From Microglena sp. YARC (lineage: Eukaryota > Chlorophyta > Chlorophyceae > Chlamydomonadales > Chlamydomonadaceae), in assembly GCA_022414725.1 (NCBI GenBank), contig CM039462.1, positions 100,838,481-100,902,480 of the forward strand: 64,000 nt of DNA. Direction: 5' to 3'. Of the stretch, positions 16,175 through 63,223 are shown in pieces. Position numbers and translations under genes: made by a program. Position 1 is the first letter of the stretch; each line of letters starts with the position of its first letter. The notes below the pieces were generated by a model. That model worked only from the letters and a program-made list of their open reading frames with translations. It did not search any database and was not told the origin of the DNA.

Positions 16175-16267
16175 GAGGGACCTCTCACAGCAGAGCAGGA
16201 GCATCTGGTTGAGAAAGCACGCCCTCTGCTGACCAAGTGGATCAAACGCCTCAACTGCCTGGTCGTG
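16175..16267 (+). CDS. NAXD: NAXD exon A
   Basis: Ninety-three nt, phase 0 at both ends, between TTCTGCAG and GTAAGAC. It encodes [20 protein letters not shown] and ends at LNCLVV, the strand leading into the GPGMG loop of the next exon. It is the only copy that contains the EGPLTAEQE part; all other copies in the neighbourhood hold just the 3' half. Confidence 0.85.
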
Positions 16268-19200
16268 GTAAGACTTTTTAGCCCTTTTTCATTTTACGTT
16301 TTCAGGTGACTTTATATAATATTTACCAGGTATCGATATTTACTTTGTATACACGTTTTTTCTTTTGTCTTTCCTTTTTTGTTAATCACGCCCACTGTTG
16401 ACCAAGTGGATCAAACGCCTCAATTACCTGGTCGTGGTAAGACTTTTTAGCCCTTCCTCTATTTCATTTTCAGCTTGCAGGTGACGTTACATAATATATA
16501 CACGGCTATATAAAGTTGTTTTTCTTTTTCTTTTTCTTTTCTTTTCTCCTTGTTTAAAAGCACGCCCTCTGTTGACCAAATGGATCAAACACCGTAACTG
16601 CCTGGTCGTGGTAAGACCTTTAAGCCCTTCCTCTTTTTCATTTTCAGCTTGCAGGTGATGTTACATATTATATACACGGCTATATACAGTTGTTTTCCTC
16701 TTTCTTTTCTTTTCTCCTTGTTTAAAAGCACGCCCTCTGTTGACCAAGTGGATCAAACACCTCAACTGCCTGGTCGTGGTAAGACTTTTTAGCCCTTCCT
16801 CTTTTTCATTTTCAGCTTGCAGGTGATGTTACATATTATATACACGGCTATATACAGTTGTTTTTCTTTTTCTTTTCTTTTTTCCTTGTTTAAAAGCACG
16901 CCCTCTGTTGACCAAATGGATCAAACACCGCAACTGCCTGGTCGTGGTAAGACTTTTTAGCCCTTCCTCTTATTCATTTACAGCTTACAGGTGACTTTAT
17001 ATAATATATACCTGTATATACAGTTGTTTTTCTTTTTCTTTTCTTCCTTGTTTTTCCTTTTTTTTAATCACGCCCTCTGCTGACCAAGTGGATCAAACGC
17101 CTCAACTGCCTGGTCGTGGTAAGACTGGGTCGGGTTGGTGTATGGGAGCATAGATGTGGGGATTGGTTTGTTTGTGTGTCTGTGTGTGGGGGGGGTATGG
17201 GTGCATAATCGTGGTAAGACTGCATGCAATACGCTGTTTTTTTCCTGACGGCGCCTCTCTATTGTGTCGCTGCATGGCGATGCATGGGTCCAGCTAAAAA
17301 TGCCCCCCCGACCCCCCCCCCACCCCCAGGCTCCGAGCTCCCGAGGTTCGGGGGGCAGCGCGTTGCACTGGGGTCGCACTGAGTCGCTCAAGTTGCGACA
17401 TGTCCCACGGAAAAAAGTGAACTGCATGCAGTGCAAGCTCACTTTGCAGCCTGCAAGTGACTTTATACAATTTATTAAAAAAAAACTACGCCCTCTCCTG
17501 ACCACGTAGATAAAACGTCTCAACTGCCTGGTCCTGGTAAGACTGCATGCAGTGCACGCTCATTTTGCAGCTTGCAAGTGACCATATCAAATGTCTCTAA
17601 TGCATTTATTAAATAATGTATGCATGTATTAATTTATTTATGCATTTATCCGGCATGTATGCGTTTATTTATGCATGTATGCATTCATGAATTAATACGG
17701 CCCTGTACTGCCATATTATTATTGCTTGTGTGCTGCAGGGCCCAGGTATAGGAGATGACCCATTAGTACATGCGACAGATAGGGTCTCCATAAGACTGAA
17801 TCAAATGTCTTCAATGCATTTATTTATCAGATATTATTCATTTTACATCATTTATTATATCTTTATTTATTTTATTTCGCCATAGGACTGTGTCAAATGC
17901 CTTTAATGCATGTATTAATTATATATTATGAATTATTAATTATTTATTTATTAAATATTTATTTATTTATTTCGCTACAAGACAGTATCAAATGTCGTTA
18001 ATGCATTTATGTATTATATATTATTTTACTATATATATGGATTTATTACATATGTATTTATTATATATTTTTTTATTTTTTTTCGCCATTAGACCGAATA
18101 AAATGTTAAGAGAACGATGATTTGGCTAATTTGGCAGGACTTGGCTACCAGTTTTTTTGTTTTCAAATCAAAAAGAGGAAATCTTATTCCTTTTTCTTTT
18201 TTCTCCATTTTCCCTTGCAAAACAGGATCCTTATTCCGATTTTTGTCGATTGGGGTCATTTTTAGTCAATTGCAGTAAAAAAAAAAAAAAAAGGTTTCTT
18301 ATTCCGGCAGTTGGGGGCAAAATGGGGTCTCGTATTCCGATCGGTATATATTCCGTGAAAAAAATATCCCTGTTGGCTACATCTAATAAAATCAATGACC
18401 ACCTTAGTCATTAAATATGTATTGGCACCTATGCAACATCTAGTAAAATCTAGTAACTACATGCAACATCTCATCCAAGCTAATTTGGGAGGACTTGGCT
18501 ACCTACGTACCACAACATATCCATCTTACTTTTATATATGTATTCATGTTAATTTCAATTTTTTATATACACTCATGATCATTTGGGGGTGACCAATTAA
18601 TTCAATGCACCAACTTGTTCACAATAATTCTGCATAAATTGATAAATTGTGTAGGGCTCTCGGTGATTGGCACCAGCGCAAGCGAACAGGCTTGCCCCCG
18701 CAACCTCAGGCCTCGTCATAAGGTGTTTAATGCATTTATTGATTTATTAATTTATGCATGTATTAATTTATTCATTTATGCATGTATTAATTTATTTATG
18801 CACTTATGCATTAATACAGCCCTGTACCGCCATCTTATTATTGCTTGTGTGCTGCAGGGCCCAGGTATGGGAGATGACCCATTAGTACAGGCGACAGCTA
18901 TGGCCGCCATAAGAATTGCTCGTGAGCTGAACCTCCCACTCCTTGTTGACGGTAGTGGCATCAACGTCATTGTCAAGCATCCTGATTTGGTTCGTGTAAG
19001 TTTGAATGCTTGTGTTGCTTGTATGCACATCTTTTTTTCCGCTACGAGCAGCAGCTTCCAAGCAGCTTCCAAGCAGCTCCTTGAGCCAGCCGCCTAAGCC
19101 AGCCAAGAGCAGCTACGGTTGTGTGGTTCGTGTTTCTTTTTTTGTTGCAGTCCAAGTTGAGGGTAGTGGCATCAACGTCATTGTCAAGCACCCTGATTTG

Positions 19201-21027
19201 GTTTGTGTATGTGCTAATGCGTGTGCTGCTTGTGTGGTTTGTGTTTTTTTGTTCGTTGCAGTCCAGGGGGTACCCAACTTGGCTAACAGGACTCGCCCAA
19301 TCTCAATTAATCAAGAGAATAAGAGAGGATTATAGATTATCCTGAGCGGCTATTGCTTATGATTTTGGACATGCATGCTTATGCTTACAGTGCAGCAACC
19401 AACCAACCAACCAAACCAACCAACCAACCAACCAACCAACCAACCAACCAACCAACCAACCAACCAACCAACCAACCAACCAACCAACAACCAACCAACC
19501 AACCAAACCAACCAACCAACCAACCAACCAACTAACCAACCAACCTTCAGTTGCTAGCTGGTAGCTTGGTGTGGCGGGCCCATCGGTTTTATTGACTACG
19601 AGCATCAGCTTTCAGGTAGCTCACCTAGCTTGGCCCGGCTTAACTTGGCTTGGCCTGGCTTGGCTTTTAGGAAGCTCACCTGGCTTGGCTCGGCTTGGCT
19701 TGGCTTGGCCTGGCTTGGCTTTTAGGTAGCTCACCTGGCTTGGCTTTTAGGTAGATCACCTGGCTTGCCTTGAGTTTCCTTTCCTTTCCTTTCCTTTCCT
19801 TGCCTTGCCTTGCCTTGCCTTGCCTTGCCTTGCCTTGCCTTGCCTTGCCTTGCCTTGCCTTGCCTTGCCCTTGCCTGGCTTGGCTTGGCTTCTAGGTAGC
19901 TAACTGGCTTGGCTTGGTTTGGCTAACCCCCCACCCCTACCCACCCCATAACTGCCCCTTCCGCCCCCACCCCCAATAACCGCCCACCCCCACCCACCCC
20001 CCGTACCCCCTACCCCGCACCCCCACCCCATACAACCCCACCCCTACCCACCTTCACCCCCCATAACCCCTAGGAGACATAACCACGCCAGAATGCTTTT
20101 GCTTTCCTCAGGACTACCAAGAATGCGTCCTCTCCCCGAATTGAATTTGAATTTTGAAAATTCCTCGGGGCCACCAAGAATGACTTTGCTTCCCTCAGGA
20201 CTACCCAGAATGGGTCATCAGCCATGTAACAATTAAATTTAATCTATTTCTTTCTCAGGGCTACCAAGAATGCGTGCTCACCCCGAATTTGAATTTCAAA
20301 GTGAAAATTCCTCAGGGCTACCAAGAATGTGTGCTCACCCAGAATTTGAATTTGAAATTTCCCTCAGGACTACCAAGAATGCATGCTCACCCTGGCTTTG
20401 AATTTGAATTTGAAATTATCCTCAGGGCTACCAAGAATGCTTGCTCACCCCAAATTTGAATTTGAATTTAAATGTTTCCTCGGGGCCACCAAGAATGCGT
20501 GCTCACCCCAAATTTGAATTGAATTTGAACCTTTCCTCAGGGCTACCAAGAATGCGTGCTCACCCTGAATTTGAATTTGAATTTGAAACTTTCCTCAGGG
20601 CTACCAAGAATGCGTGCTCACCCAGAATATAAATTTGAATTTGAACTTTTCTCCGGGCTACTAAGAGTGCGTTCTCACCCCGAATTTCAATTTGAATTTG
20701 AAATTTCCCTTAGGGCTACCAAGAATGCATGCTCACCCTGAATTTGAATTTGAATTTGAAACTTTCCTCAGGGCTACCAAGAATGCGTGCTCAACCAGAA
20801 TATGAATTTGAATTTGAACTTTTTCTCCGGGCTACTAAGAGTGCGTTCTCACCCCGAATTTCAATACGAATTTGAAATTTTCCTCAGGGCTACCAAGAAT
20901 GCATGCTCACCCTGAATTTCAATATGAATTTGAAACTTTCCTCAGGGCTACCAGGAACGCATGCTCACCCCGAATATTGCGGAGCTAGGACGACTGGGTA
21001 CAACAGTAGGGGTGCCTCTGCCCGCCC

Positions 21028-21070
<43 letters not shown>

Positions 21071-24000
21071 ATCCCTACCCACCTCCACACCCCATACCCC
21101 CCACCCCCACCCCTACCCACCCCATAACTGCCCCCCCACCCCACCAGGGGTACCAAGAGTGCGTGCTCACCCCAAATATTGCGGAGCTAGGGCGATTGGG
21201 GACAACAGTAGGGGTGCCTCTGGAAGGACCAATGGGCAGCGGTTGGCAGAAACACACTGATGACATAGCCAAAGGTGGGTGAACCAAAATGCCAAATAAA
21301 AATGAACACCCCACACCCCGCACCCCACACCCCACACCTTTATGGGTGGGGCCAAATCAAAGTCTATCACACCTAAACATCTGGTTGAATCTTGGCCTTG
21401 GTGGGGGTAGTGGGGTGAAGGAGCCATGGGCTGTAGTTGGCAGAGACACACTGAGGACATAGCCGAAGGTGGGTGAACCAAGTGGGTTAGTGGGGGGATG
21501 GAAAGTGCTACCCACTTCAGAGCTGTTGTGCTTAACGTTGTATTTTGGCCTTGGTGGGGGTAATGGGGTGAAGGACCCATGGGAAGCAGTTGGCAGAGAC
21601 ACACTGATGTGGGTGAGCCAAGTGGGTTAGTGGGGGGGTGGAAAGTGGTGGGGGGAAGCTACCCTCCAGTGAGCTAGCATCCACAACCCAGATCCTCCTC
21701 GGGTTTAGGGTTTAGGGTTTAGGGTACAGGAGATCTGGCTTGTGGATGCTAGCTGACTGGAGGGTAGCTTCCCCCCTCCGTGGAAAGTGCTACCGGCTTC
21801 TTGGTTTTTCAGCTTTCAGGTTGTATTGTGGCCTTGGTGGGGTGGGTGGGTGAAGGAGCCTTGGGAAGCGGTTGTCAGAGACACACTGAGGTGGGTGAGC
21901 CAAGTGGGTTAGTGGGGTGATGGAAAGTACCACCGGCTTCTTGTTTTTCAGCTTTCAGGTTGTATTGTGGCCTTGGTGGGGTGGGTGGGTAAAGGAGCCA
22001 TGGGCACAGGTTGGCAGAAACACACTGCGGACATAGCTAAAGGTGGGTGAGCCATGTGGGTTGGTGGGGTGATGGAAAGGGCTACCTACTTCTTAATTTT
22101 TCGACGTTCAGGTTGTCTCTTGGCCTTGGTGGGGTTGGCAGAAACACACTGAGGGCATAGCCAAAGGTGGGTGAGCCATGTGGGTTGGTGGGGTGACGGA
22201 AAGTACTACCGGCTTCTTGTTTTTCGACGTTCAGGTTGTATTGTGGCCTTGGTGGGGGAAGTGGGGCGAAGGAGCCATGAGAAGAGGTTGGCAGAGACAC
22301 ACCGAGGTGGGTGGGCCAAGCGGGCTGGTGGGGGGATGGAAAGTGCTTCAGGCTTCTTAGTCTTCAACTTGCAGGTTGTATATAGGCCTTGTTGGGGGTA
22401 GTGGGGTTAAGGCGAATGGGAACCGGTTGGCAGAGACACACTGAGGACATAGCCAAAGGTGGGTGAACCAAGTTGCCAAATAATAATAAAAATAAACACC
22501 CCATTCCCCTCATCCCAGGCCTTTATGGGTGGGGCCAAATCAAACTCTATCACACCTATATATCCGGTTATATCTTGGCCTTGGTGGGGGTAGTGGGGTG
22601 AAGGAACCATGGGAAGAGGTTGGCAGGTAAATACTGAGGACATAGCCAAAGGTGGGTGAACCAAGTGGGTTGGTGGGGGGATGGAAAGTGCTACCCACTT
22701 CTTAGTTGTCAGCTTTCAGGTTGTGTCTTGGCCTTGGTGATTTAGTGGGGTGAAGGAGCCATGGGCACAGGTTGGCAGAGACATACTGAGGACATAGGCA
22801 AAGGTGGGTCAGCCAAGGGCCAACTAAAAATAAATAACCCATACCCACACCCCACACCCCACACCCCACACCCCACATTCCACACCCCACACCCCACACT
22901 CCAGCCCTCCAGCCCTCGCACCCCGCACCTCACACCCCACACCCCGCACCCTACACCCCACACCCCAGGCCTTTATGGGTGGGGCCAAATCAAAGTCTAT
23001 CACACCTATATATCTGGTGGTATCTTGGCCTTGGTGGGGGTCGTGGGGAGAAGGAGCCATGGGCACAGGTTGGCAGATACACACTGAGGACATAGCCAAA
23101 GGTGGGTGAACCAATTGGGTTGGTGGGGGGATGGAAAGTGCTACCCACTTCTTAGTCGTCAGCTTTCAGGTTGTATCTTGGCCTTGGTGATGTCGTGGGG
23201 TGAAGGAGCCATGGGCACAAGTTGGCAGAGACATACTGAGGACATAGGCAACGATGAGTGAGCCAAGGGCCAAATACAAATCACTAATAGGCAAAAACGC
23301 TAATAATAAAATCGCTGAACATCAAAGTCTATCGCACCTTTATGCCTTGGCCTTGGTTGGGGTAGTTGACCCATGAATAAGTAAACAAACAAATAGTCCG
23401 CCGTATTACAAGGCATGAGGTTGAGGGGGCCAGCCCGGTGTCTTGCACAAGAACCCATGAGATAAATAAATAAACAAATAGTACGCCGTATTACGAGGCG
23501 TGAGGTTGAGGGGGCCAGCCCGTTTGCTTGCACAAGGACCCATGGGCATCGGTTGGCAAATTGCTGGCTAAAGCTATGTAACCAAGTTCAATGCGGTTGG
23601 TCATACTATTTGGTAAGTAACCGAGTTCAAGTTCAATATGTTTTCAAACTTGCAGGTTGGGATGGCCCCCTTATTGTATCCAAAGGCCCCCAGGACTTAT
23701 TGGTCAGCAGCAGTGGAGCAATCGCCCGATGTGGGACTGAAGCTGCGCCAAAGCGCTCTGGGGGGCAAGGGGATGTTCTGGCAGGTGCGCTGGCTGATCA
23801 AGTAGTTTTGTTTTTTTACGAAGCTTTTTTTTCAAATAGCATGCGGGAAGTAGCATCCCCCGAAGTAGCATGTATGAAGGCATGTATGGCAGGTGCGCTG
23901 GCAGATCAAGTAGATATGTTTTAGTTAAAAAAAAAAAAAAAAAACTTATTAAATTATTTGTTCAGATAGCATGAGGGAAGTAGCATATCCCCCGAGTAGC

Positions 24001-30067: not shown

Positions 30068-31295
30068 AGGCTGGATCAATCAGATGATTTGGCAGGTAGC
30101 TTGTCTCCCGTGGTCAACAGAGGTAGTGGTGAATGTTCGTTTGGTCAAGGGTCAGTATCTCCCACCGACCCTAAGTGCGCCTAGTTTTTGTAGGAGTGGC
30201 AACGCCATTCGAACTGAATCCTTGGTGTCGCTAGTTTGTGTAGGGAGACCCATCTCCTGGGGTGAAATTCCTTTCACAACCAGTAACGACTAAAAAAATG
30301 GGCAGATTCATGGGTCCATGGTGGCTAGAGATATCATTCCTCGTCTCAATGCGTCATTTAAGTCCCTCTCCCAGCGCTGAAGGTTGGATCAATCAGATGA
30401 TTTGGCAGGTAGCTTGTCTGCCGTGGTCAACAGAGGTAGTGGTGAATGTTCGTTTGGTCAAGGGTCTGTATCTTCCACCGACCCGAAGTGCGCCTAGTCT
30501 TTGTAGGAGTGGAAACGCCATTCGAACTGAATCCTTGGTGTCGCTAGTTTGTGTAGGGAGACCCACCTCCTGGGGTGAAATTCCTTTCACAACCAGTAAC
30601 GACTAAAAAAATGGGCAGGTTCATGGGTCCATGGTGGCTGGAGATATCATTCCACATCTCAATGCGTCATTTAAGTCCCTCTCCCAGCGCTGAAGGTTGG
30701 ATCAATCAGATGATTTGGCAGGTAGCTTGTCTCCCGTGGTCAAAAGAGGTAGTGGTGAATGTTCGTTTGGTCAAGGGTCTGTATCTTCCACCAACCCGAA
30801 GTGCGCCTAGTCTTTGTAGGAGTGGCAACGCCATTCGAACTGAATCCTCGGTGTCGCTAGTTTGTGTAGAGAGACCTACCTCATGGGGTGAAATTCCTTT
30901 CACAACCAGTCATGACTACAAAAATGGGCAGGTTCACGGGTCCATGGTGGCTGAGATATCATTCCTCATTTCAATGCGTCATTTAAGTCCCTTTACCAGC
31001 GCTGAAGGTTGGATCAATCAGATGGTCAGATTCACAGCAGGTAACTTCAGGAGGACCCCTAGCTCTGGTGCCTGAGACGCAACCAATAGTATAGCCTGCG
31101 TCCTGTGACGCAACGGACCCTTCCTTCTAGTCAACGGTCCCTCCCCACGTGTTGTCCTGCGGCGCAACGGACCCTTCGGTGCTGTGTCTGCGACGGAGGA
31201 CGCAGCGTCCTGAACACAGGTGTATGGTGGCTGGAAATATCATTCCTCATCGGAATGCGTCATGTAAGTCCATCTGTCAGTGCTTTAGGTTGAAT
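30068..31295 (+). repeat. Stop-codon-edge copies of NAXD exon F (about 310-bp units)
   Basis: The last ~70 bases of exon F (from ATGGTGGCTGGAGATATCAT to the TGA) plus about 240 bp of following sequence recur at about 30310, 30625, 30940 and, more degraded, 31215. Most copies end CCAGCGCTGA instead of CCAGTACTGA. The tail includes TTTGGCAGGTAGCTTGTCTC and ACCCAC-TCCTGGGGTGAAATTCC. Open frames through the units have no family support. Confidence 0.93.
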
Positions 31296-34099: not shown

Positions 34100-34205
34100 G
34101 CACGCCTCTTCCACGCCTCTTCCAGCCGATGGTGTCGAATTAAGGGAGCTGGTAGCCGGAGTATCCATACCTGGTGATGGGCAATCCATGTAGATGTCAG
34201 ACAGT
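34100..34205 (-). CDS. Possible last exon of the multicopper oxidase gene
   Basis: An acceptor ACAACACAG lies above 34205 and the frame that continues the AG-ended exon at 35057 is open: LSDIYMDCPSPGMDTPATSS, followed by a Ser/Thr/Gly stretch. The frame then runs into the MITE, so the true end is unknown. Phase agreement is the only support. It could equally be chance. Confidence 0.25.
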
Positions 34206-35056: not shown

Positions 35057-35172
35057 CTGTTATCGACCCAGTCCTTGGTGAAAGGGTTGGTGTTGAAGAG
35101 GCACTTCTTGGGGCATTTGGGAAATCCCTTAGGCTGCTTGGTCCACTTGTCTACCGACTCAATCATGTAGAA
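35057..35172 (-). CDS. Oxidase exon m11
   Basis: One hundred and sixteen nt between TGTGTGCAG and GTGGGTTAAG. It encodes [20 protein letters not shown] then [18 protein letters not shown]. Joined to m10 it gives [13 protein letters not shown], parallel to the MGMGVVFAEGV-type ending of plant ascorbate oxidases. It ends in split phase, so at least one more exon follows. Confidence 0.8.
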
Positions 35173-52293: not shown

Positions 52294-53410
52294 ACACCAT
52301 CACCATCATCACCACTTACACCATTGTAGAAGTCCATGCTCCACATGGGTACTGCACTCGAAGGAGTCGGGGTCTCAGGAAAGGTGTTTACTGCTGCTCC
52401 TTCATAGGACAGCACGGCATATCCACTAGGGGTGCCAGCCCTGCACATCCAATACAGGCGAGAATGTTTTAGAATTGAAAGTAGAGCAAAGCATTTACAA
52501 ATGTAGTCATTAAAATGTTCTACAAATACTAATAGCAAAAATAAATCATGCGCCAACACGACGTAGACACTAGGGGTGCCAGACCTGCACAAAAAACACA
52601 GGCATGAGATTTGAAGAATTAAATTAGAGCAAAAGCATTTACAAATTCATGTTGCCGTCACACACATGTTCTAAAGATACTCAAAGCAAAAACAGATCAT
52701 ACGCTAACTCACACATCTGGTAGGGCTTCCAGACCTACACCCTGACCACATACGCATTCTATGGATGCTATGATTCATTGCGGATGCTGTGATTCGCTGT
52801 GGATACTGTGTAAGTTGTGGATGCTTTGATCCGCTGTGGACACTGAGTAAGTTGTGGATGCTATGATCCGCTGTGGACACTGTGTAAGTTGTGGATGCAC
52901 TATTGTGGATGCTGTTTCTTCTTATTAGTCATGCTTATATGAATAAACATTTAAAGTGGTTAAAACTCTATTGAATTTTATTAAACAATCAGAATATTGA
53001 AGAAGACCATACGCCAACACGGCAAATGTTCAAAAAATACTCACAGCAAAAACAGTGGATGCTGCTGTGGATGCTGTTTTTTCTTATAAGTCATGCTTGA
53101 AAGGAGGAACATTACAAGTTGACAAAACTCGATAGAATTGTATTAAATGATCAGAATATTGAAGACGACCCTGCGCCAACATGGTATGTCCGATGGGGCT
53201 CCCAGACTTACACACGAAACTCCGAGAACAAGAAGGGAGTGTGGTCAAGGGAACTGAGAGCATGACTGGTGCTAAGATGAGGAAGAGTCTATCGAGAAGG
53301 GGTAGAAGGGAGGTTGGGGGGATTCAGGTTAGGGGTAGTGCATGTATTTGAAGGGGGAGAACCCATATTCGCAATAATGTGGCCAACAGCCACTCATGCA
53401 GGGGGGGGGG

Positions 53411-53498
<88 letters not shown>

Positions 53499-53685
53499 GT
53501 ATACAGGATGTTCCACAGTACATGATGTCATAGAGCATGCTTTGTAGACAGCAGGCAGTGGGACTTAACCTACCTCTCCTGAGCATTAACACTGATCCAG
53601 AAGTTCTTCGCTACCATGGGGGATGTCTTGGTGTCGAGAATGACATCAGCCCTGCACAGAGATATGATATGAGACATGAGTATTG

Positions 53686-53732: not shown

Positions 53733-53784
53733 GGATATATGGGGATATATATAATAATATATATATATATATATGGGGATATAT

Positions 53785-53846
<62 letters not shown>

Positions 53847-55320: not shown

Positions 55321-55358
<38 letters not shown>

Positions 55359-58300
55359 CTTCATGAGAGTAGATGTGGCCACCGGCCACACGGGCTACCG
55401 TACTAGTATATATATATATATATATTGGGGGAGCGTATATATATATATATATATATATATTGGGGAGATATGCATTGGGGTATATATGAAAGATGGGCAT
55501 AGGAATGGTGGCGTTGGTTTGTATACAACAGGTTTTTTTTAAATTGCATTGGGCGTCTGGTCAGCGACAATAATTACAACCGCTATGTGCAGAGAGATGG
55601 GTATAAGGGTGGCGGCATTGTTTAGTATACAATAGCTGTTTTCAAAAATTGCATTGGGTGTCTGATCCGCAACAACAATTACAACTGCAATGCGCAGAGA
55701 GATGGGCATTGGAATGGTGGCATTGGTTTTTTAGCATAAAAGTAGCTGTTTTCAAAAATTGCATTGGGCGTCTGGTCGGCGACAATAATTGCAACTGCTA
55801 TGTGCAGAGAGATGGGTGTTGGGGTGGCGGCACCGGTGTACATCACTGCTAATTTGGGGGGGCTTCGGCCCCCTTTTATTGGGCTTACATCACTGCTAAT
55901 TTGGGGGGGCTTTGGCACCCTCTCATTGGGCTTACATCACTGCTAATTTGGGGGGGCTTTGGCACCCTTTTATTTGGCTTTGGCTAAAGGGGGCGGCGAT
56001 GAATATTACGTAAACCCAGTGTAGAAACATGAGTGCTGGGTGGTGGCACCAGCCAAGCAGTAAGTCAGGAATACGTTACATTGGTGGTTAGTAAGTGGTT
56101 GGTGGTTAGTAAGTGGTTGGTGGTTAGTAAGTCAGGAATACGTTACACTGGTGGTTGTTAAGTGGTTGGTGGTTAGTAAGTCAGGAATACGTTACGTTGG
56201 TGGTCGGTGGTTGGTAAGTAGTTGGTGGTTAGTAAGTCAGGAATACGGTGCGTTTGTGGTGGGTGGTTGGTAAGTGGTTGGTGGTTAGTAAGTCAGGAAT
56301 ACGTTACATTGGTTGTCGGTGGTGGGTAAGTGGTTGGTGGTTAGTAAGTCAGGAATACGTTACGTTGGTGGTCGGTGGTTGGTAAGCGGTTGGTGGTTAG
56401 TAAGTCAGGAATACGTTACGTTGGTGGTCGGTGGTTGGTAAGTGGTTGGTGGTTAGTAATTCAGGAATACGTTACATTGGTGGTTGGCCCCAGTGCAAGC
56501 AAACGGGCTGCCCCCCCACAACCTCATGCCTCGCAGTAAGCCGTACTTTTTATTTATTTACTTATAATACGTTACATACGGTACTCAGCAAAACAATGAC
56601 AGGGCTGAAGAGTCGTTAAGTAGAGATTTTACTGGCCCATCTTAGTTGATTCTTGAGCATCGACAACAACATGATACTTGATATTCACAGACACACACAC
56701 AAACCAAAAAGCCTACCCAAAGCCTCCATAAAATACCACACCATGCTATGAACCTACCAAGAACCCTTAGTTGATTCTTGAGCATAAACTACAACGAGTC
56801 TCACATGGGACAATGTGATGAAGCACACCATGATGTAAAACATGATACAAGGCACACCATGATGTACAACATGATGTACAACAGGGAACACAAGCTTGAG
56901 TGGAGAACTCTCTTGAGTGGATCTAGCCACTCCTGAATATTGAACTTTGAACTGTGGATGGTGGATTTTGGACCGTGTACTGTGGACGATGTACTTAGTA
57001 CTTATGGTGGATCTGGCCACTCCTGGGCATTGGACTTTGGATGGTGGATTTGGGAGGGTGCACTGTGGGCGATGTACTTTGTAATGTGGACTGTTGTATG
57101 TGGACAGTGTACCTTGTATGGTGTGCCTTGTGCTGTGGACTGTGTACCTAGTCCTGTGGACAAATGTTCCATCATCATCATCATCATAAAACAGCAGATC
57201 ACATATGCCCGTTGTTCAGGTCCACACACTCTTACACTCATTGCTTATAAGAAGGGTTCCACACACTCTTACACTCTCAGCTCACCCCTGACCGTTGTTC
57301 AGGTCCACACACTCTTATAAGAAAAGGTTATAAGAAGATATTATATGAAGAGGTTATAAGAAGAGACCTGCACACATTTACACTCTTCTCTAATAAGAAA
57401 GATACCACTCACTCTTATAAGAAGAGGTTATAAGAAGGGTTCTACACATTATTACATTTCCAGCTCACCTCTGACCGATGTTCAGGTCCACACACTCTGT
57501 TGAGAAGGGCTCCACAGGAAGACCATCCAAAGCTATGACACTCACTTCATGGTTTTCAAAACAAATCGATGTGTACAAAAGGGAGGTGCTGGCAATCAGA
57601 CGGAATCGGTACGACATGCCCTCCTTCACGCTGAATGACGTATGGGTGCATCCTGACAGGGTGGCATGGGGGTGGCAGAGCTGGCATTAGCAAGCAAGTT
57701 TTTATTATGAGTGCATCCTGACAGGGTGGCATGGGGGTGTCAGAGCTGGCATTAGCTTGCATGTATTTGTTTGGGCATTCCGCCGAGAGGGTATGGATGT
57801 GTCAGAGCTGGCATTAGAATGCATGTTTTATTGGTGCAGCTTGATAGATTGGTATGGACGTGTCAGACCTGGCATTAGCATGCATGGTACCATAGATGCA
57901 TCTTGGCAGGTTGGCATGGAATTAGCAGATCTGGCATTAGCTTGCATGTATTTGTTTGTGCATTCCGACAAGATGGTATTGACGTGGAAGATATGGCATT
58001 AGCATGCATGGTTCCATAGGTGCATCCTGGCAGGTTGGTATGGAATTAGCAGATCTGGCATTAGCTTGCATGTATTGTTTTCTGCATCCTGTCAACATGA
58101 CATTTACTTACTGGAACATAAACACAGAGCTAACGCACGAGCTGCTGACATAACACACGGTAAAAATAGTGGGGGTAACATCTTTGGGCACGAGGATATC
58201 TTGCTGTATCCGTAGGTATTGTAAATTCTGAGGAGAGCATGGAATGTTGGAGCTATCAAACACAACACACTCCAGACAGTGGATCCAGTTCTAGTCACAG

Positions 58301-61300: not shown

Positions 61301-63223
61301 AACCAAAAAGGCATACCTGGATTGGTGTCAGAAGCCCAGGGCTGGACCACACTAAGACCTTTGCCGACAGTGAAGATGGAGGCATTGCACTGCGGAACAG
61401 CTCCTCCTCCAAACCCAGGGGCAAGGGGGCAGTCACCATAATAGCCATGGCCATTAATCAGAATGCCTTGGGGGTTGCCAGCCCACTTCCATGAGCCTGT
61501 GTTGTCTGTCACCATGGCTGCATCCAAAGGCCTGTGCGTGTATATGTTTGTGTCTGTGTCTGTGTATATGAGTGTATGTGCTTATGTGTGTGTATATATA
61601 TGTGTGTATATGTAAGGATGTGTACATGTGTGACTATATGTATGTCTACATCAAAACAGTGATTTTGTTTTCAAATCTGAAAGTGGGTTTCTCCTAGCTA
61701 TAATTTGTTAGGCCTCCTCCAGGGATGGCCTTTTAGTGCTTTCTATAGCTTTTTACAGCTGTTTGAAGTTTTTTAGGGCAATTTAGGGCAATAAACAAAA
61801 AACAAATTGTGTTTATACTTTTTTATAGCGATAATTTTGCAAAAACGGGGTCAAAACTAGCGATCGCTATATATAGCGGAAATAAAAATCCCTGCATCAA
61901 AACCTAAGCAATGTACATAAATATGTTCTTCTGAAAGTCCTGGATTCTCACGAAGAACACATATAGCGGGGGAATGGGCTTACCTGCTCAAACGCATGGC
62001 TAACACATTTGCTGGCGTATGGTACCAGTCACTGATGAAGAGCACATGCTCCTCATCATACTCGAAAGGCTCGGGATCATCCTCAGCAGGCATGATGATG
62101 AGAGGGCCTTGCAGTCCATCTGTCAATGGGTGAAGCCATTTCTTATTTTTTGTTATTATTTGTATTTTGCATTTGATCATTTTCTACTTTTATTTGCTCT
62201 GTAAGATGATGGGCTCCCCATCGTAATCAAAATTCTCGGGCTAATTCTCAGCAGGCAGAATGAAGAGAGGGCCTTGCAGTCCATCTGTCAATGGGTGAAT
62301 ATATTCATTATGATGTGTTATTATTTTGCATTTTATTAGATATTATTTCATTTGCTCTATAAGAGGACATGCTCCCGTCATAGTCAAAAGGTAAGGTATG
62401 CCGATTTACCAATTCGATATGCCCAGGGATTTTTAGTTCCGCTATATATAGCGATCGCTAGTTTTGACCCCGTTTTTGCGAAATTATCGCTATAAAAAAG
62501 AAAAAAAAGTTTGTCTTGTTTTTTGCCCTAAATTGCCCTAAAAAGCTTCAAAAAGCTATAAAAAGCTACAGAAAGCACTAAAAAGCCGTCCCTGGAGGAG
62601 GCCTAACAAAATATAGCTAGGAGAAACCCACTTTCAGATTTGAAAAAACATCACTGGATATGCCCAATAATCGAGCACTCTGCTTCACAAACAGTGAGTA
62701 TCCTGAAGACTCTTAGACACTGTCAGCAAGCCAAAACAGACCTAGACGGACACATCACTCACGATTAAGTACTTGCAAGCCTTGATGGCAAAGGGGTGAT
62801 TGTGGCAGGTGTATGTTCCAGCATACTGACACATCACTCACCACAAAGTACTTACCAGCCTTGAAAGAAAAGGGTAGATGTAGGTTCCAGCATATTGACA
62901 CATCATTCAGAATGAAGTGCTTACAAGTATGGAATGGCAATATATATGATATCATGTGATATCACGTCGTCATACGATATCATATAGTGCCGGTAGTCTG
63001 ACTAGGCTCAAGCAAGTTACTATTTATATACAAGATCATGTGACGCAATTTGTATGGTATCACATGATATCATACCTGCCTTGGGTCAACATCATATGAT
63101 ACGCCGGTACCTACTTACCAGCCTTGAAGGCAAAGGAGTGGTCATGCCAGAAGTAGGTTCCAGCATTAGTGTCAACCTTGATTGCGTAGGTGAAGTTGGT
63201 GCCAGGCATGATGGGGCATTGTT
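35057..63223 (-). CDS. Multicopper oxidase, ascorbate-oxidase type (eleven exons; N-terminus outside window)
   Basis: Exons m1-m11 are 63119-63223, 61984-62119, 61317-61531, 57469-57652, 53574-53651, 52322-52440, 50289-50391, 40581-40751, 38236-38426, 37210-37406 and 35057-35172; every junction keeps phase, giving about 538 residues. The family oxidises a reductant at a type-1 copper and reduces O2 to water at a trinuclear centre. The sequence shows TYFWHDH (second trinuclear His-X-His), [19 protein letters not shown]...ALDGLPVEP...[26 protein letters not shown] and [15 protein letters not shown], with Met ten residues after Cys as in axial-Met enzymes. The first HWHG motif would lie upstream of 63223. 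A secreted or vacuolar location is usual for the family but not visible here. Intron 7 (9.5 kb) holds a copia element. Confidence 0.9.
35755..36010. repeat. Tandem AACCATTCATGCACATATTACAAACAATATT
   Basis: About six units of 30-60 bp alternate AACCATTCATGCACATA and AACCATTTATACAAAAATTATAAAC. A similar AACCATTC motif starts at 35456. No coding signal. Confidence 0.9.
36215..36895 (-). repeat. Tandem GACAG-rich array from the oxidase intron 10 start
   Basis: Units of 45-60 bp contain GAACAG-GCAGGACAGA-GGAT or, at 36540-36800, five close copies of GTGCAGGACAGAGTGATATA then ATAACAAGAGGAGTCAAAAA. The ATAACAAGAGGAGTCAAACA block is the intron sequence next to the m10 donor, so the array is an extension of that donor-edge series. 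Confidence 0.85.
36897..37170 (-). repeat. Donor-edge copies of oxidase exon m10
   Basis: Two units (about 36905 and 37075) carry the end of m10 on the minus strand (ATGGGACA-GGGGTGGG-AC-TCTC) with its donor and a shared AATAGACTACCATAGCCTGA block. Confidence 0.85.
37210..37406 (-). CDS. Oxidase exon m10
   Basis: One hundred and ninety-seven nt between CATGCGCAG and GTGGGTAC. It encodes [20 protein letters not shown] then [20 protein letters not shown] and [20 protein letters not shown]. It holds the Cys-His bridge between copper centres and the axial Met. Confidence 0.93.
37412..37735 (-). repeat. Acceptor-edge copies of oxidase exon m10 (four)
   Basis: On the plus strand each unit reads TTAGTTCTTAGGGTCAAACT, then GTCCCAGAACTGC-CGTGCATG-TGAGGGTGG. 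The exonic part matches the first ~45 bases of m10. Units lie upstream of the exon at about 80-bp spacing. Confidence 0.9.
37918..38215 (-). repeat. Donor-edge copies of oxidase exon m9 and derived minisatellite
   Basis: Units with CTCACCCCAGAATCTGTGGCCAT (plus strand) copy the end of m9 plus its donor. Between 37940 and 38090 this decays into the ~19-bp unit CAACTCACTCCAGACCCCC repeated seven to eight times. Confidence 0.88.
38236..38426 (-). CDS. Oxidase exon m9
   Basis: One hundred and ninety-one nt between TTCACGCAG and GTAAGTTC. It encodes [20 protein letters not shown] then [20 protein letters not shown] and [21 protein letters not shown] supplies one type-1 and two trinuclear copper ligands. 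Confidence 0.93.
38488..38922. mobile_element. TIR-bearing insert of about 430 bp
   Basis: The ends GGGGGGGCAGAAAGACAGATT...GACCGCACCTTCG and the inverse of GGGGGGGCAAGAAAAAAGC...CCGCACCTTCG are imperfect inverted repeats of about 40-50 bp. GCGTGAAACCA flanks both sides but is part of the local acceptor-edge repeat. No coding capacity; class unknown. Confidence 0.55.
39295..39620 (-). repeat. Acceptor-edge copies of oxidase exon m9
   Basis: At 39303, 39440-39500 and 39555-39612, segments of the m9 start recur with their upstream intron (TCCATGATCCTGCGTGAAACC on the plus strand; GGGTACTCAGGCATATCCTTG). They lie upstream of the true exon. Confidence 0.8.
39644..39910 (-). CDS. Unidentified open segment
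   Basis: A minus-strand frame of about 90 codons includes [20 protein letters not shown] and [19 protein letters not shown]. The RYQK/RYHE/RYLEP/RYQKIP recurrence matches a repeated CTGGTAGCG on the plus strand. It is not needed for oxidase phase and I recognise no family. It could be a captured gene fragment or chance. Confidence 0.25.
   Translation of the reverse strand, partial: TCLIRYQKGPCCSQTFRYHETRILALPPKTPGPALQAAYTYRYLEPNLDRYRIPDRYQKIPFLKQKKLCDEEGQRGVNIPGEFVAMNL
39910..40092 (+). mobile_element. Non-autonomous element, GCGTCGCAAGCGACGC family, copy 2
   Basis: It shares ATGCAGCGTCACAAGCGACGC, GGAGCGACAGGAGGCAACGGA and the terminal hairpin GGGGGCTCTTGCCCCCTTAA...GGGGGCTCCG with the copy at 25388. 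No coding capacity. Confidence 0.75.
40136..40284 (+). mobile_element. CGGCATATCATATGATG-family MITE interrupting an m9 edge copy
   Basis: It starts TAGGGATTGGCATATCATATG and ends near TATTGCCGTTCCCTG. It separates CCATACCAATAGATGGGTACT from GGGCATATCC, which are contiguous in exon m9 and its other copies. A clean target duplication is not visible. Confidence 0.7.
40373..40466. repeat. (CTT)n microsatellite, about 31 repeats
   Basis: An almost pure CTT/TTC run within oxidase intron 8. ATACATACTACATACATATACTAG repeats lie on both sides. Confidence 0.98.
40581..40751 (-). CDS. Oxidase exon m8
   Basis: One hundred and seventy-one nt between CCAATCTTAG and GTAAGAAG. It encodes [20 protein letters not shown] and, near the end, [20 protein letters not shown]. 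Joined to m7 it gives [20 protein letters not shown], equivalent to the W-INN-S--P-TP segment of ascorbate oxidases. Confidence 0.85.
40765..40965. repeat. G/T-rich GGGTTGGG minisatellite
   Basis: Irregular GGTTGGGTTGGGG and GGTGGGTGG repeats immediately upstream of the m8 acceptor. Confidence 0.9.
40985..41286 (-). repeat. Acceptor-edge copy of oxidase exon m8
   Basis: GGATTCATCACGTTGTTCATAG (41157-41178, plus strand) copies the start of m8. The neighbouring block GCATGCTTGGGAGGTCAGCATG...CCCCTTCCTGCACCCCTCTCACCC is present twice, at 41025 and 41195. Confidence 0.85.
41287..41440 (+). mobile_element. MITE related to the TAGGG-CGGC family
   Basis: It begins TAGGGGTCGGCTATGTTATAT and ends TTAGTTGCCGTTCCATA. 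The flanks CCCAAAAG and CCCATAGG agree at 6 of 8 bases; comparison with the nearby duplicate suggests an original CCCATAAG. The interior is AT-rich and unlike the ATCATATGAT members. Confidence 0.65.
41697..41808 (+). CDS. Exon-like segment on the + strand inside an oxidase intron
   Basis: An acceptor TTCGTGCAG precedes 41697 and a donor context AAGG|GTATTG follows 41808. The frame reads [20 protein letters not shown] then [17 protein letters not shown]. One copy of its start (CGTGCAG|CTGATGACCCTGAA) lies upstream, and two to three copies of its end (GAATCTGCTGTGACCTACCG) lie downstream. This is the same arrangement as the true exons in this window. I recognise no family and no partner exons. 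Confidence 0.4.
41870..41955 (+). repeat. Donor-edge copy of the segment at 41697-41808
   Basis: CAGAGACATTGGAATCTGCT and GTGACCTACCGTCCAGGGGTATTG recur with the intron start TATACCCACACC. A shorter copy, TGACCTACCGTCCAGGGGTAG, is at 42529. Confidence 0.75.
41955..42158 (+). mobile_element. tRNA-derived SINE, copy 2
   Basis: The head has TTGGTCTAGTGGTACC and GGGTCGATTCCCCC. The body GGTCGTTGTCAACTGCGATGG and the tail TACGACGGGCTCTCTTAATACC match the copies at 29095 and 49685 in the same order. Confidence 0.8.
42240..42532 (+). mobile_element. Diverged MITE of the 61657 family carrying a (GT)n-(G)n expansion
   Basis: It shares TTTCAAATCTG, AGGCCTCCTCCAGG, AACGGGGTCAAAA and GCGATC with the elements at 61657 and 62424. 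About 95 bp of GT repeat plus poly-G (42358-42456) lies inside. The target duplication is not clear. Confidence 0.65.
42593..42735 (+). mobile_element. hAT-type MITE, CGGCATATCATATGATG family (TSD CAAATAAG)
   Basis: The 143-bp element starts TAGGGGCCGGCATGTCATATG and ends ATTGGCGTTCCCTA. The 8-bp duplication CAAATAAG is perfect at 42585-42592 and 42736-42743. It lies 20 bp from the copia insertion site. Confidence 0.92.
42763..42959 (-). repeat. Copia 3' LTR
   Basis: One hundred and ninety-seven bp with TG...CA ends. Preceded (plus strand) by the target copy GCGAC at 42758-42762. Confidence 0.97.
43587..44230 (-). pseudogene. Copia RNase H segment
   Basis: [19 protein letters not shown], then the RNase H motifs [31 protein letters not shown] and [16 protein letters not shown], and the usual copia ending LADTFTKPL. 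It overlaps the preceding frame by a few bases at about 44205. An intact element would read these as one polyprotein. Confidence 0.88.
44194..46300 (-). pseudogene. Copia reverse transcriptase segment
   Basis: An open frame of about 700 codons. A Pro/Ser-rich linker is followed by [15 protein letters not shown], then the RT core with [36 protein letters not shown] and the catalytic YVDDFW (about 44585-44610). It ends just after [13 protein letters not shown], where another frame break separates it from RNase H. Confidence 0.9.
46217..47548 (-). pseudogene. Copia protease-integrase segment
   Basis: This continues in the same frame as gag, after a single TGA (47549-47551). The protease active-site DSGAS is near 47443-47457. 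The integrase HHCC zinc region ([10 protein letters not shown] ... CDACCLGK) and core segments ([25 protein letters not shown]) follow. The frame is lost near 46300 within ELFLSARPR, where the next frame continues with [17 protein letters not shown]. Aspartic protease and integrase mature the particle and insert cDNA. Confidence 0.88.
47552..49139 (-). pseudogene. Copia gag region, frame-broken
   Basis: It probably starts at 49139 ([20 protein letters not shown]). The frame breaks at a G8 tract (49063-49070, plus strand) and again near 48240, after which an open stretch runs to 47552. That stretch contains [20 protein letters not shown] and the zinc knuckle [14 protein letters not shown] (CX2CX4HX4C), then a Gly/Arg-rich tail and QMALLAKK. 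Gag packages element RNA in virus-like particles. Which of the overlapping frames is used at the N-terminus is unclear to me. Confidence 0.8.
49208..49405 (-). repeat. Copia 5' LTR
   Basis: One hundred and ninety-eight bp, differing from its partner at two positions. Followed by GCGAC at 49406-49410. As the 5' LTR it should hold the promoter; none can be pinpointed. Confidence 0.97.
49411..49690. repeat. Tandem GATATCCAAATCAAACAAAAAGT
   Basis: Three to four units of about 50 bp read GATATCCAAATCAAACAAAA, then TGCAAGGTTT-ACTATATGGT-TGATGTG, and decay to 49690. The 5-bp copia target lies at the left end. Confidence 0.9.
49685..49990 (+). mobile_element. tRNA-derived SINE, copy 3, with internal insertion
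   Basis: The head AATGGCTCAATGGTAGAGCC matches copy 1. About 125 bp of CAGCA-rich sequence interrupts it. The body GGTCGCTGTCAACCGCCATGG and TTTGTCCAGGTAAAGTATAAG, and the tail GGGCTCCTTATACCACGCC, match the other copies. Confidence 0.75.
50289..50391 (-). CDS. Oxidase exon m7
   Basis: One hundred and three nt between AGTAACCAG and GTAATGATT. It encodes [20 protein letters not shown] then [13 protein letters not shown]. It corresponds to the linker between domains 2 and 3. Its start edge is repeated five times upstream. Confidence 0.8.
50392..51262 (-). repeat. Acceptor-edge copies of oxidase exon m7 (five, about 165 bp)
   Basis: Five units with GGCCTCTGGTATTGGGCCCATG (plus strand) copy the m7 acceptor and first exon bases. 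Each includes TTGACCTTGGTTGGAGTGTGG, TTTTAATCTGCAGACATATTGC and GGTTGGTGCCTGGTGGGTGGG. Units are more than 95% alike by eye in the middle of the array. They lie upstream of m7 on the minus strand. Confidence 0.93.
51480..52321 (-). repeat. Donor-edge copies of oxidase exon m6 (about eight)
   Basis: Plus-strand units read ACTTACACCATTGTAGAAATCC, ATGCTGCAATCATCA and (TCATCACTATCCCCA)n. The exonic part is the last ~20 bases of m6 (GGACTTCTACAATG on the minus strand) plus its donor. Three proximal units carry poly-C and CA runs (52149-52195 and 52252-52296). Distal units near 51500-51800 share GTTGCTGTAACTTGTGGAG. Confidence 0.93.
52322..52440 (-). CDS. Oxidase exon m6
   Basis: One hundred and nineteen nt between GATGTGCAG and GTGTAAGTGG. 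It encodes [20 protein letters not shown] then [26 protein letters not shown] matches the family's third strand of domain 2. A GTAAGT two bases further in is a rival donor, but only the GTGTAA site keeps phase with m7. Confidence 0.85.
52550..53220 (-). repeat. Acceptor-edge copies of oxidase exon m6 (three)
   Basis: At 52560-52590, 52710-52735 and 53185-53215, the start of m6 recurs (plus strand TAGGGGTGCCAGACCTGCACA or variants). Between them is a GTGGATGCT-TGATCCGCTGTGG array (52755-52925). Confidence 0.85.
53413..53496. repeat. (TA)n microsatellite
   Basis: About 82 bp of TA after a short poly-G, in oxidase intron 5. Confidence 0.98.
53574..53651 (-). CDS. Oxidase exon m5
   Basis: Seventy-eight nt between CTGTGCAG and GTAGGTTA. 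It encodes [20 protein letters not shown] then VNAQE. Joined to m4 it reads [12 protein letters not shown], as expected for the family. Confidence 0.88.
53688..53848. repeat. (TA)n with GGGGATATATGGGGATATA units
   Basis: AT runs with three short G4 interruptions, just upstream of m5. Confidence 0.97.
53890..53935 (-). repeat. Acceptor-edge copy of oxidase exon m5
   Basis: GTGACATCAAGCCTGCACATAG, then ATATGATATG-GACATGAGT, match 53640-53680. This is one upstream copy of the m5 start and adjacent intron. Confidence 0.8.
53990..54835. other. Low-copy intron sequence with one internal duplication
   Basis: Sequence without simple repeats. Two ~100-bp segments (54345-54440 and 54480-54570) resemble each other (TTCTTCCCACTG-AT-GAGAAACATGTCG; GCAAAGTTGA-TGGATGAA). 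No frame shows family motifs. Confidence 0.5.
54840..55460. repeat. G-rich and simple-sequence tracts
   Basis: GGTGGG-type repeats (54850-55060), two copies of AACC-GTTTTGCAACC/AACCATTATGTAACC with AGCC-AAA-AGGTGTGGCCAA, a poly-G run of about 35 bp (55323-55357), and two TA runs. Confidence 0.85.
55540..55985. repeat. 115-bp and 57-bp tandem repeats
   Basis: Three units of about 110 bp (GCATTGGGCGTCTGGTC-GCGAC, AATAATTACAAC-GC-ATGTGCAGAGAGATGGG) are followed by three units of about 57 bp (TTACATCACTGCTAATTTGG, then GGGGGCTT-GG). Confidence 0.93.
56070..56490. repeat. GTTAGTAAGTCAGGAATACGTTAC tandem repeat
   Basis: Eight units of 50-60 bp with GGTTGGTGGTTAGTAAGTCA then GGAATACGTTACGTTGGTGG. 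The end joins a CAACCTCATGCCTCG interspersed block. Confidence 0.95.
56890..57185. repeat. GTGGA-rich degenerate repeats
   Basis: GTGGATCTGGCCACTCCTG is present twice (about 56918 and 57008, second base context varying). GGATGGTGGATTT and GTGGAC-GTGTACCTTGT are repeated. Confidence 0.8.
57195..57468 (-). repeat. Donor-edge copies of oxidase exon m4
   Basis: Plus-strand GACCGTTGTTCAGGTCCACA, CACACTCTTACACTC and TTATAAGAAG units recur three to four times. The first block is the end of m4 (the CVDLN segment plus the GTGAGCTG donor), and units lie just downstream of the exon. Confidence 0.9.
57469..57652 (-). CDS. Oxidase exon m4
   Basis: One hundred and eighty-four nt between CCTGTCAG and GTGAGCTG. 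It encodes [20 protein letters not shown] then [20 protein letters not shown] and NIGQR. The YRFRLI and DG--VEPF-----D motifs are characteristic of the second domain. Confidence 0.9.
57653..58095 (-). repeat. Acceptor-edge copies of oxidase exon m4 (six)
   Basis: Units of about 70 bp read GTGCATCCTGACAGGGTGGCATGG, then GGCAGAGCTGGCATTAGC and TTGCATGTATTTGTT. The first bases copy the m4 start and its acceptor. Divergence increases with distance from the exon. Confidence 0.92.
58302..58500 (-). mobile_element. Non-autonomous element, GCGTCGCAAGCGACGC family, copy 3
   Basis: The hairpin end GGCAGAGCCCCCCTTATGGGGG lies at the left. GCCACCTGTCATTCCAATAGCC and AACACTCTCCTCCAATTTCTG follow. The order is the reverse of the copy at 25388. 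The GCGTCGC end is eroded. Confidence 0.7.
58746..58936 (-). mobile_element. Non-autonomous element, GCGTCGCAAGCGACGC family, copy 4
   Basis: The hairpin GGAGCCCCCTCTTCAAGGGGGC, then CATTCCGTTGCCAACACACTCC and CGCCAATTTACTGCGTCGCTTG. It directly abuts the next MITE at TGCATAGGACTTG. Confidence 0.75.
58937..59122 (+). mobile_element. MITE, GGCAGCTTCTAGGCAGCTCC family, copy
   Basis: TTGGGCTACGCATGGCAGCTT at the left and the inverse of GGGGCTATGTGTAGAAGCTTCC at the right. The interior CACCTGAAGCTAGCTTGTGC and CATGACAGGC-TA-CGATGCAGCTG are shared with 27471 and, inverted, with 60521. Confidence 0.75.
59125..59295. repeat. 27-bp tandem repeat
   Basis: Six units of GTAAAAAGTGATCCCGGCAC followed by ACCGTAT. 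It is open in one frame (KSDPGTPYV), which a 27-bp unit gives automatically. It probably grew from the GAAAAAGTGATCC at the MITE border. Confidence 0.95.
59600..60137. repeat. 67-bp tandem repeat (eight units)
   Basis: The unit contains GTCCTGCCAATTCAAATGTA, TGCTACTGCCCAGGGGTAGC and CAACTAGGCGGAAGGGACTT. It is preceded by two degraded units. No exon with this edge was found. Confidence 0.95.
60521..60723 (-). mobile_element. MITE, GGCAGCTTCTAGGCAGCTCC family, copy with extended inverted ends
   Basis: CACTGTTTCATTTTTGGGCT at the left pairs with the inverse CACTGTTTCGTTTTTGAGCC at the right. The interior is the reverse of the copy at 58937. A target duplication is not evident. Confidence 0.8.
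60737..61316 (-). repeat. Donor-edge copies of oxidase exon m3 (five)
   Basis: Plus-strand units of about 115 bp read CCATACCTGGATTGGTGTC, then GACCTCACTACGGCCTGG and GATGGAGGCATTGCACA, followed by ACATA-GA-ACCCTAAACCC. The exonic part is the last ~80 bases of m3 with its GTATGGC donor. All lie downstream of the exon. Confidence 0.95.
61317..61531 (-). CDS. Oxidase exon m3
   Basis: Two hundred and fifteen nt between CACGCACAG and GTATGCC. It encodes [20 protein letters not shown] then [20 protein letters not shown], and ends [20 protein letters not shown] plus DTNP. The ILING-G motif marks the second cupredoxin domain. Confidence 0.9.
61657..61894 (+). mobile_element. hAT-type MITE with 8-bp TSD (CATCAAAA)
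   Basis: The 238-bp element starts CAGTGATTTTGTTTTCAAATC and ends GGAAATAAAAATCCCTG. The 8-bp duplication CATCAAAA is perfect at 61649-61656 and 61895-61902. It includes the palindrome-rich ACTAGCGATCGCTATATATA block. It lies downstream of exon m2 on the transcript. Confidence 0.93.
61984..62119 (-). CDS. Oxidase exon m2
   Basis: One hundred and thirty-six nt between TTGACAG and GTAAGCC. It encodes [20 protein letters not shown] then [20 protein letters not shown], the conserved DGL-GPLI and SDWYH motifs of the family. It is flanked by an inverted pair of related MITEs (61657-61894 and 62424-62656). Confidence 0.9.
62230..62312 (-). repeat. Acceptor-edge copy of oxidase exon m2
   Basis: Plus-strand GAGAGGGCCTTGCAGTCCATC and TGTCAATGGGTGAA match the m2 start and acceptor (62100-62135). 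It sits upstream of m2. Confidence 0.88.
62424..62656 (-). mobile_element. hAT-type MITE with 8-bp TSD (GATATGCC), inverted relative to 61657
   Basis: The 233-bp element starts CAGGGATTTTTAGTTCCGC and ends GAAAAAACATCACTG. The 8-bp duplication GATATGCC is perfect at 62416-62423 and 62657-62664. It is about 85-90% like the element at 61657 by eye, in the opposite orientation. Confidence 0.93.
62745..62927 (-). repeat. Donor-edge copies of oxidase exon m1 (two to three)
   Basis: Plus-strand AAGTACTT-C-AGCCTTGA, GGCAAAGGGGTGATTGTGGC and GTATGTTCCAGCATACTGACACATCA recur at 62765 and, in part, at 62838 and 62900. They copy the end of m1 downstream of it. Confidence 0.85.
62928..63113 (-). mobile_element. 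CGGCATATCATATGATG-family MITE next to exon m1
   Basis: Ends TATGGAATGGCAATATATATG and GATACGCCGGTACCTA. The flanks CTTACAAG (62920-62927) and CTTACCAG (63114-63121) differ at one base. The right flank includes the m1 donor (ACTTAC), so the insertion duplicated the splice site region. Confidence 0.78.
63119..63223 (-). CDS. Oxidase exon m1
   Basis: One hundred and five nt between CCCGCAG and GTAAGTAGG. It encodes [20 protein letters not shown] followed by [14 protein letters not shown]. It carries the second copper His-X-His pair; most relatives have His-Ser-His here. Confidence 0.88.

What the first reader, a model, noticed from the sequence alone, without database searches (positions are those of the whole stretch)
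16175..63223. Exon-edge fans: arrays of copied acceptor edges upstream and copied donor edges downstream of nearly every exon
Seen directly. In two unrelated genes on opposite strands, the arrays before an exon contain only its first 20-50 bases with the adjoining intron end, and the arrays after it contain only its last 20-80 bases with the adjoining intron start. Clear cases are NAXD D (about 16 before, 11 after), E (7 after) and F (6 before); oxidase m3 (5 after), m4 (6 before, 3-4 after), m6 (3 before, 8 after), m7 (5 before), m9 (both sides) and m10 (4 before, 2 after). Copies face the exon in the correct direction each time. Introns seem to have grown by repeated local duplication spanning exon-intron boundaries, leaving one full exon in the centre. 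Possible consequences are massed decoy splice sites or buffering of splice-site loss. I know of no described system like this.
Basis: partly seen in the sequence, partly recalled or inferred. Interest (0 to 1): 0.95.

Follow-up and report, generated by a model that had tools for sequence, protein, structure and literature searches.

The report
Tandem-copied exon edges in alga introns
In what looks like a large-genomed green alga, short DNA stretches have been copied head-to-tail so often that many introns hold rows of duplicated exon ends with their splice signals; the striking one-sidedness follows simply from how tandem duplication works, but it shows a splicing machinery living among many intact-looking false splice sites.

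Summary
In the window, 73 boundary-spanning copies of exon edges lie on the predicted side, 4 on the wrong side (all of NAXD exon n1's donor edge), none inverted; 22 of 33 exon ends and 16 of 17 exons are involved. It recurs outside: the next oxidase exon, and two genes met in stretches taken at regular spacing: an ABC1/UbiB-like kinase about 96 Mb away (10 of 15 ends) and an elongation-factor-3-like gene (1 of 13). The explanation is simpler than a new system. About 45% of the sampled genome is local tandem duplication, as are the introns. A tandem duplication crossing a splice site, with one exon kept intact, must leave the spare edge on the side seen; untargeted duplications in simulation gave the same polarity. 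Over four genes exon ends are not clearly more often duplicated than pseudo-exons (32 of 64 against 26.8 ± 4.3, p 0.13), though the window alone shows a modest excess. Copies keep the splice dinucleotide in 77 of 86 cases. This is an extreme variant of a known process; whether any decoy is spliced cannot be told without RNA.

The parts
16175..16267 (+). NAXD exon n1 (first NAXD exon found in the window)
   Evidence: homology and GT-AG
16384..17536 (+). six donor-edge copies of n1 downstream, spacing about 168 for the first five
14533..15256 (+). wrong-side donor-edge copies of n1, upstream of the exon
   Evidence: BLAST from 14637 on; unit at 14533 by alignment
18858..18995 (+). NAXD exon n2; acceptor-edge copy at 17739-17795, donor-edge copy at 19148-19206
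20115..21020 (+). 14 acceptor-edge copies of exon n3 (period about 58)
21148..21274 (+). NAXD exon n3
21417..23558 (+). 12 copies of the 3' part of n3, 8 of them reaching the donor edge
23656..23784 (+). NAXD exon n4; tandem array 23811-24674 downstream, 5 boundary-spanning donor-edge copies
29271..29783 (+). six acceptor-edge copies of n5, in units that also hold CCCTAAA repeats
29823..30067 (+). NAXD terminal exon n5
30313..31284 (+). four copies of the 3' end of n5 with 3' flank
63119..63223 (-). oxidase exon m1; two donor-edge copies at 62778-62893
61984..62119 (-). oxidase exon m2; acceptor-edge copy at 62213-62284
61317..61531 (-). oxidase exon m3; five donor-edge copies at 60746-61279
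57469..57652 (-). oxidase exon m4; five acceptor-edge and two donor-edge copies
53574..53651 (-). oxidase exon m5; one possible acceptor-edge copy, may be chance
52320..52440 (-). oxidase exon m6; six donor-edge copies downstream, one acceptor-edge copy
50289..50456 (-). oxidase exon m7; five acceptor-edge copies at 50549-51276
40581..40751 (-). oxidase exon m8; one acceptor-edge copy at 41141-41178
38236..38426 (-). oxidase exon m9; two acceptor-edge and two donor-edge copies
37210..37406 (-). oxidase exon m10; three acceptor-edge copies at 37461-37682, two donor-edge copies at 36918-37122
35057..35172 (-). oxidase exon m11; four donor-edge hits at 34524-34983, three of them boundary-spanning
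34140..34170 (-). oxidase terminal exon m12; no copies found

Best explanation
The fans are the visible edge of a genome-wide process of local head-to-tail duplication. DNA segments of tens to a few hundred bases are duplicated in tandem again and again across this genome. Where a duplicated segment happens to span a splice site, the exon must stay whole on one side of the event, so the spare acceptor edge ends up upstream and the spare donor edge downstream. Splicing tolerates this if it keeps using the exon-proximal pair of sites; the spare edges then drift and are partly homogenised as ordinary minisatellites. Shown: copies, polarity, background level in the sampled genome, other genes, simulation. 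Inferred: neutrality, use of the proximal site, and the molecular cause (slippage, template switching or unequal exchange).
For: Tandem Repeats Finder independently reports arrays running into real exons (16214-17126, 29271-29873, 30000-31024, 60854-61390, 50386-51289, 37369-37719; against exons). Window introns are 47% locally duplicated; 16 stretches of 10 kb, every 6 Mb between 5 and 95 Mb of the contig, average 45% (range 7-85%). Simulated untargeted duplications, 254 of 400 runs with exactly one intact exon: 189 acceptor-upstream, 171 donor-downstream, 8 acceptor-downstream, 0 donor-upstream, 83 internal, 8 whole-exon copies. Copies occur in two genes met in stretches not chosen for them and are scarce where introns hold little duplication (eEF3-like: introns 22%, 1 of 13 ends; ABC1-like: introns 53%, 10 of 15). 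Exon ends against pseudo-exons, four genes: 32 of 64 against 26.8 ± 4.3, p 0.13 (five of the 64 ends are not splice sites). Identity falls only weakly with distance (pooled rho -0.28, p 0.03, 59 copies in 10 arrays). Copies differ from the exon by 0-25% (exonic identity about 0.88 overall), unlike assembly stutter.
Against: In the window alone exon ends exceed pseudo-exons (22 of 33 against 14.8 ± 3.2, p 0.015; p 0.028 at two stricter thresholds), as does the oxidase gene alone (15 of 24, p 0.029). Splice dinucleotides in copies are kept better than other dinucleotides (77 of 86 against 0.75-0.79; better at 27 of 32 boundaries, worse at 4, p 0.0003; against AG/GT elsewhere better at 25, worse at 5, p 0.001). 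Both can be explained because one partner of each comparison, the real exon edge, is under selection and cannot drift (inference, not tested), so selection on the copies is not excluded. The wrong-side n1 copies need an extra event. No RNA data. Only four genes were examined.
Confidence: 0.8

Rival explanations
1. Duplication is targeted to, or selectively kept at, exon ends because spare splice sites have a role: decoys, alternative or recursive splice sites, or intron-length control.
For: Window-only enrichment p 0.015-0.028; splice dinucleotides kept in 77 of 86 copies, more than controls; published excess of tandem repeats near intron-exon junctions in two other green algae (PMC3887541, abstract and passages read).
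Against: Four-gene enrichment not significant; polarity needs no targeting; better retention is expected if only the real site is constrained (inference); the eEF3-like gene has copies at 1 of 13 ends.
Confidence: 0.1
2. The arrays are an artefact of a noisy assembly.
For: The m7 exon puts the joined reading frame out of phase in the window whereas database protein P0022 reads through it, so base errors or strain differences exist; N runs lie in the window and in fetched stretches.
Against: Copies carry differing substitutions (exonic identity 0.75-1.00), the same pattern appears in several genes, and units include distinct intron sequence.
Confidence: 0.04
3. The arrays are remnants of whole-exon duplications that later lost one side.
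For: The wrong-side n1 donor copies would fit one such event; three of six upstream units (14533, 14850, 14956) are closer to the far downstream copy at 17483 (0.76-0.82) than to the other downstream units.
Against: The other three upstream units are closest to the unit of exon n1 itself (0.57-0.69). None of the 84 exon-only hits covers both exon edges; copies stop at similar exon positions within an array.
Confidence: 0.06

Closest known systems
Tandem genomic duplication as a source of introns (reviewed in PMC3443670; passages read)
   Same: Tandem duplication that copies splice-site sequence inside genes, after which splicing must pick one copy.
   Different: There a duplication within an exon creates a new intron; here duplications span existing boundaries and lengthen introns that are already there, in arrays, at 34 of the 63 exon ends examined.
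Tandem repeats concentrated near intron-exon junctions in Chlamydomonas reinhardtii and Volvox carteri (PMC3887541; abstract and passages read)
   Same: Green algae with introns rich in tandem repeats, more of them near the junctions.
   Different: In the passages read, the abundant intron motif of those algae is the dinucleotide GT/AC and copied exon edges are not mentioned; here the repeat units contain the exon edge itself.
Intronic minisatellites / tandem exon duplication (general knowledge, recalled)
   Same: Head-to-tail arrays of tens to hundreds of bases.
   Different: Tandem exon duplication copies whole exons with both splice sites; here only one edge is copied.

Membership tests
Minisatellite / tandem repeat array | Head-to-tail copies in one orientation with a common period | tested here: met
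   Tandem Repeats Finder arrays; 84 of 84 exon-only copies on the same strand
Intron gain by tandem genomic duplication | A new intron created inside a formerly continuous exon | not tested
   Intron positions were not compared with relatives
Introner / transposon-derived introns | Dispersed near-identical copies in unrelated introns | tested here: inconclusive
   Within the window no exon-derived copy lies 8 kb or more from its exon; intron parts of the units were not searched, and the genome-wide DNA search did not complete
Tandem (mutually exclusive) exon duplication | Whole exon copied with both splice sites | tested here: not met
   0 of 84 exon-only hits cover both edges
Functional decoy or recursive splice sites | Spare sites bound or used by the spliceosome | not testable with these tools
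   No RNA data; only retention of the splice dinucleotides was tested

The most novel reading that the evidence does not exclude
Spare exon edges are retained because they are used: arrays of intact acceptor and donor edges act as staging or recursive splice sites that let long, repeat-choked introns be removed stepwise, or set the rate of productive splicing, so copy number becomes a heritable dial on gene output.
Probability: 0.07. Interest if true: 0.85.

Novelty: new variant of a known kind. Interest (0 to 1): 0.52.

Why it matters
It gives a natural experiment on splice-site choice: 34 of the 63 exon ends examined sit beside one or more spare copies of the same site with its own flanking sequence, so the strength of the site itself may not explain which copy is used. 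It also documents intron growth by tandem duplication across splice sites, and warns that gene predictors could be misled by spare edges.

Tried and rejected
Targeting of exon ends: suggestive in the window, not supported over four genes. A first version of that permutation was wrong because two logical values were added; its p of 0 is discarded and one search replaces it. Divergence rising with distance from the exon: only weak. Selection purging decoys: not seen. An introner-like origin: no sign within the window, not tested genome-wide. Species: the best named NAXD relative is from Chlamydomonas eustigma, while the named oxidase relatives are mostly fungal laccases; 568 Mb and 46-54% GC in the stretches fetched resemble Chlamydomonas sp. 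ICE-L (541.9 Mb, 49% GC in a table of PMC11457085, passages read), but the organism was not established. NAXD exons before n1 were not found in the window or in the four neighbouring 10-kb stretches; they may lie in N runs. Gene finding by codon score gave one ABC1-like and one eEF3-like gene; the other candidates looked like retrotransposon, ankyrin-repeat or uncertain matter and were dropped. The names ABC1/UbiB and eEF3 are my recognition from the peptides; no family search was run on them (the ABC1 exons were also matched by tblastn to a recalled relative). The eEF3 exon join was out of frame, so at least one of its exon ends is misplaced by a base or so; its e7 acceptor is one. For the boundary-spanning counts outside the window no shuffle control was run. 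Papers: searches; none of the titles and abstracts listed there describes exon-edge arrays; passages were read in three papers, the rest were seen as listings only.

Full report
What is there. The window lies on a 195-Mb contig of a 568-Mb assembly. Two genes carry the finding: NAXD on the + strand and a multicopper oxidase on the - strand. I rebuilt their exons from database relatives and splice signals; every intron inside these models is GT-AG. Three database proteins with consecutive names (gene18222 to gene18224; P0005, P0011, P0022) match parts of these genes at 89-98% identity and appear to be predictions from the same or a very close organism. A Copia-like element occupies about 43.4-49.4 kb (open frames; the family name is my recognition).

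The copies. Searching each exon against the window gave 84 extra copies at a score that shuffled exons reach 0.047 times each. All 84 are on the gene's strand, and none lies 8 kb or more away. Copies of the exon's first bases are upstream in 33 of 33 cases; copies of its last bases are downstream in 39 of 42; 9 are internal (the last-base class includes four copies of the 3' end of terminal exon n5). Using queries that must span the boundary: 73 right side, 4 wrong side, 0 inverted, at 22 of 33 exon ends. The wrong-side copies all belong to n1's donor edge and lie near 14.5-15.3 kb. Of six upstream units aligned, three are closest, among the downstream units, to the distal copy at 17483 and three to the unit of exon n1 itself; an older block that included the exon may have been duplicated and one exon lost (inference).

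It is not confined to the window. The next oxidase exon, just outside (L004 985-1111, - strand), has three donor-edge copies downstream. Among 16 stretches of 10 kb taken every 6 Mb between 5 and 95 Mb, I recognised conserved cellular genes in two. The ABC1/UbiB-kinase-like gene (L006 and the adjoining L028, about 96 Mb from the window) has copies at 10 of 15 exon ends, 23 right side, 0 wrong side, and 3 inverted hits at one donor. The elongation-factor-3-like gene (L016) has them at 1 of 13 ends, two copies, right side (one of the 13 is the start codon). L028 was fetched to follow a gene already seen to have copies, so the ABC1 count is not a fully blind sample.

Why the polarity is expected. 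If a segment running from intron into exon is duplicated in tandem, the exon remains whole only at the second copy, so the extra acceptor edge is upstream; the mirror holds for donors. In a simulation of random tandem duplications, keeping the 254 of 400 runs with exactly one intact exon, edge copies were 189 acceptor-upstream and 171 donor-downstream against 8 acceptor-downstream and 0 donor-upstream, with 83 internal and 8 whole-exon copies. The observed polarity needs no targeting.

How common the background is. With one measure (a 40-mer with at least 28 matches within 3 kb on the same strand, low-complexity sites set aside) window introns are 47% duplicated (NAXD 60%, oxidase 40%), and the 16 spaced stretches average 45%, from 7% to 85%. 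No shuffle control was run for this measure; the values of L005 and L016 (5% and 7%) suggest that chance adds little. Exon ends against randomly placed pseudo-exons: in the window 22 of 33 against 14.8 ± 3.2 (p 0.015; 0.028 at two stricter thresholds); over four genes 32 of 64 against 26.8 ± 4.3 (p 0.13; NAXD p 0.39, oxidase 0.03, ABC1 0.49, eEF3 0.96; five of the 64 ends are not splice sites). The window signal is thus modest and does not hold up as a general excess in this small sample. Published work reports more tandem repeats near intron-exon junctions in C. reinhardtii and V. carteri (PMC3887541), so a mild excess would not be strange.

State of the decoys. In 86 copies aligned at least 10 bases on both sides (45 donor downstream, 1 donor upstream, 40 acceptor upstream), the splice dinucleotide is unchanged in 77, against 0.75-0.79 for other dinucleotides (at the exon outside the window the donor is GC). 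The difference is significant by boundary (27 better, 4 worse of 32, p 0.0003; 25 and 5 against AG/GT elsewhere, p 0.001), but the real site cannot change while its neighbours can, which by itself predicts a gap of about this kind (inference, not tested). What can be said is that decoy sites show no sign of being destroyed. Identity falls weakly with distance, as in arrays that turn over and homogenise.

Verdict. The interpretation reduces to a very active tandem duplication process, seen in most stretches sampled, meeting splice sites. It is a new variant of a known kind; its value is as a test bed for splice-site choice among near-identical neighbours.

Noticed in passing
window 5283-14460: A huge array of about 51-bp units reading ...TTTCAGACCAGGTAATG..., each with an acceptor-like and a donor-like motif; 60 TTTCAGAC..AGGTA sites between 5365 and 15272 on + and none on - in the whole window. 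Possibly the donor fan of an unseen earlier NAXD exon.
   Followed up: partly
window 29271-29820, 60854-61390, 63267-63331, 21701-21725, 3376-3438: CCCTAAA/TTTAGGG telomere-type repeats, some within the repeat units beside n5 and m3 and just before m1.
   Followed up: partly
window 50289-50456 (-): Oxidase exon m7 throws the joined frame out of phase in the window, while database protein P0022 reads through it: base errors or a strain difference.
   Followed up: partly
L004 985-1111 (-): The oxidase exon before m1 ends in a GC donor (GCAAGT); several of its donor-edge copies also show GCAAGT.
   Followed up: no
window 15375-16160: A long CACACAGGTCACACACAGATCA array runs up to the acceptor of NAXD n1.
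   Followed up: no
L015: Ankyrin-like repeats in a tandem array on the - strand, named from the peptide only.
   Followed up: no
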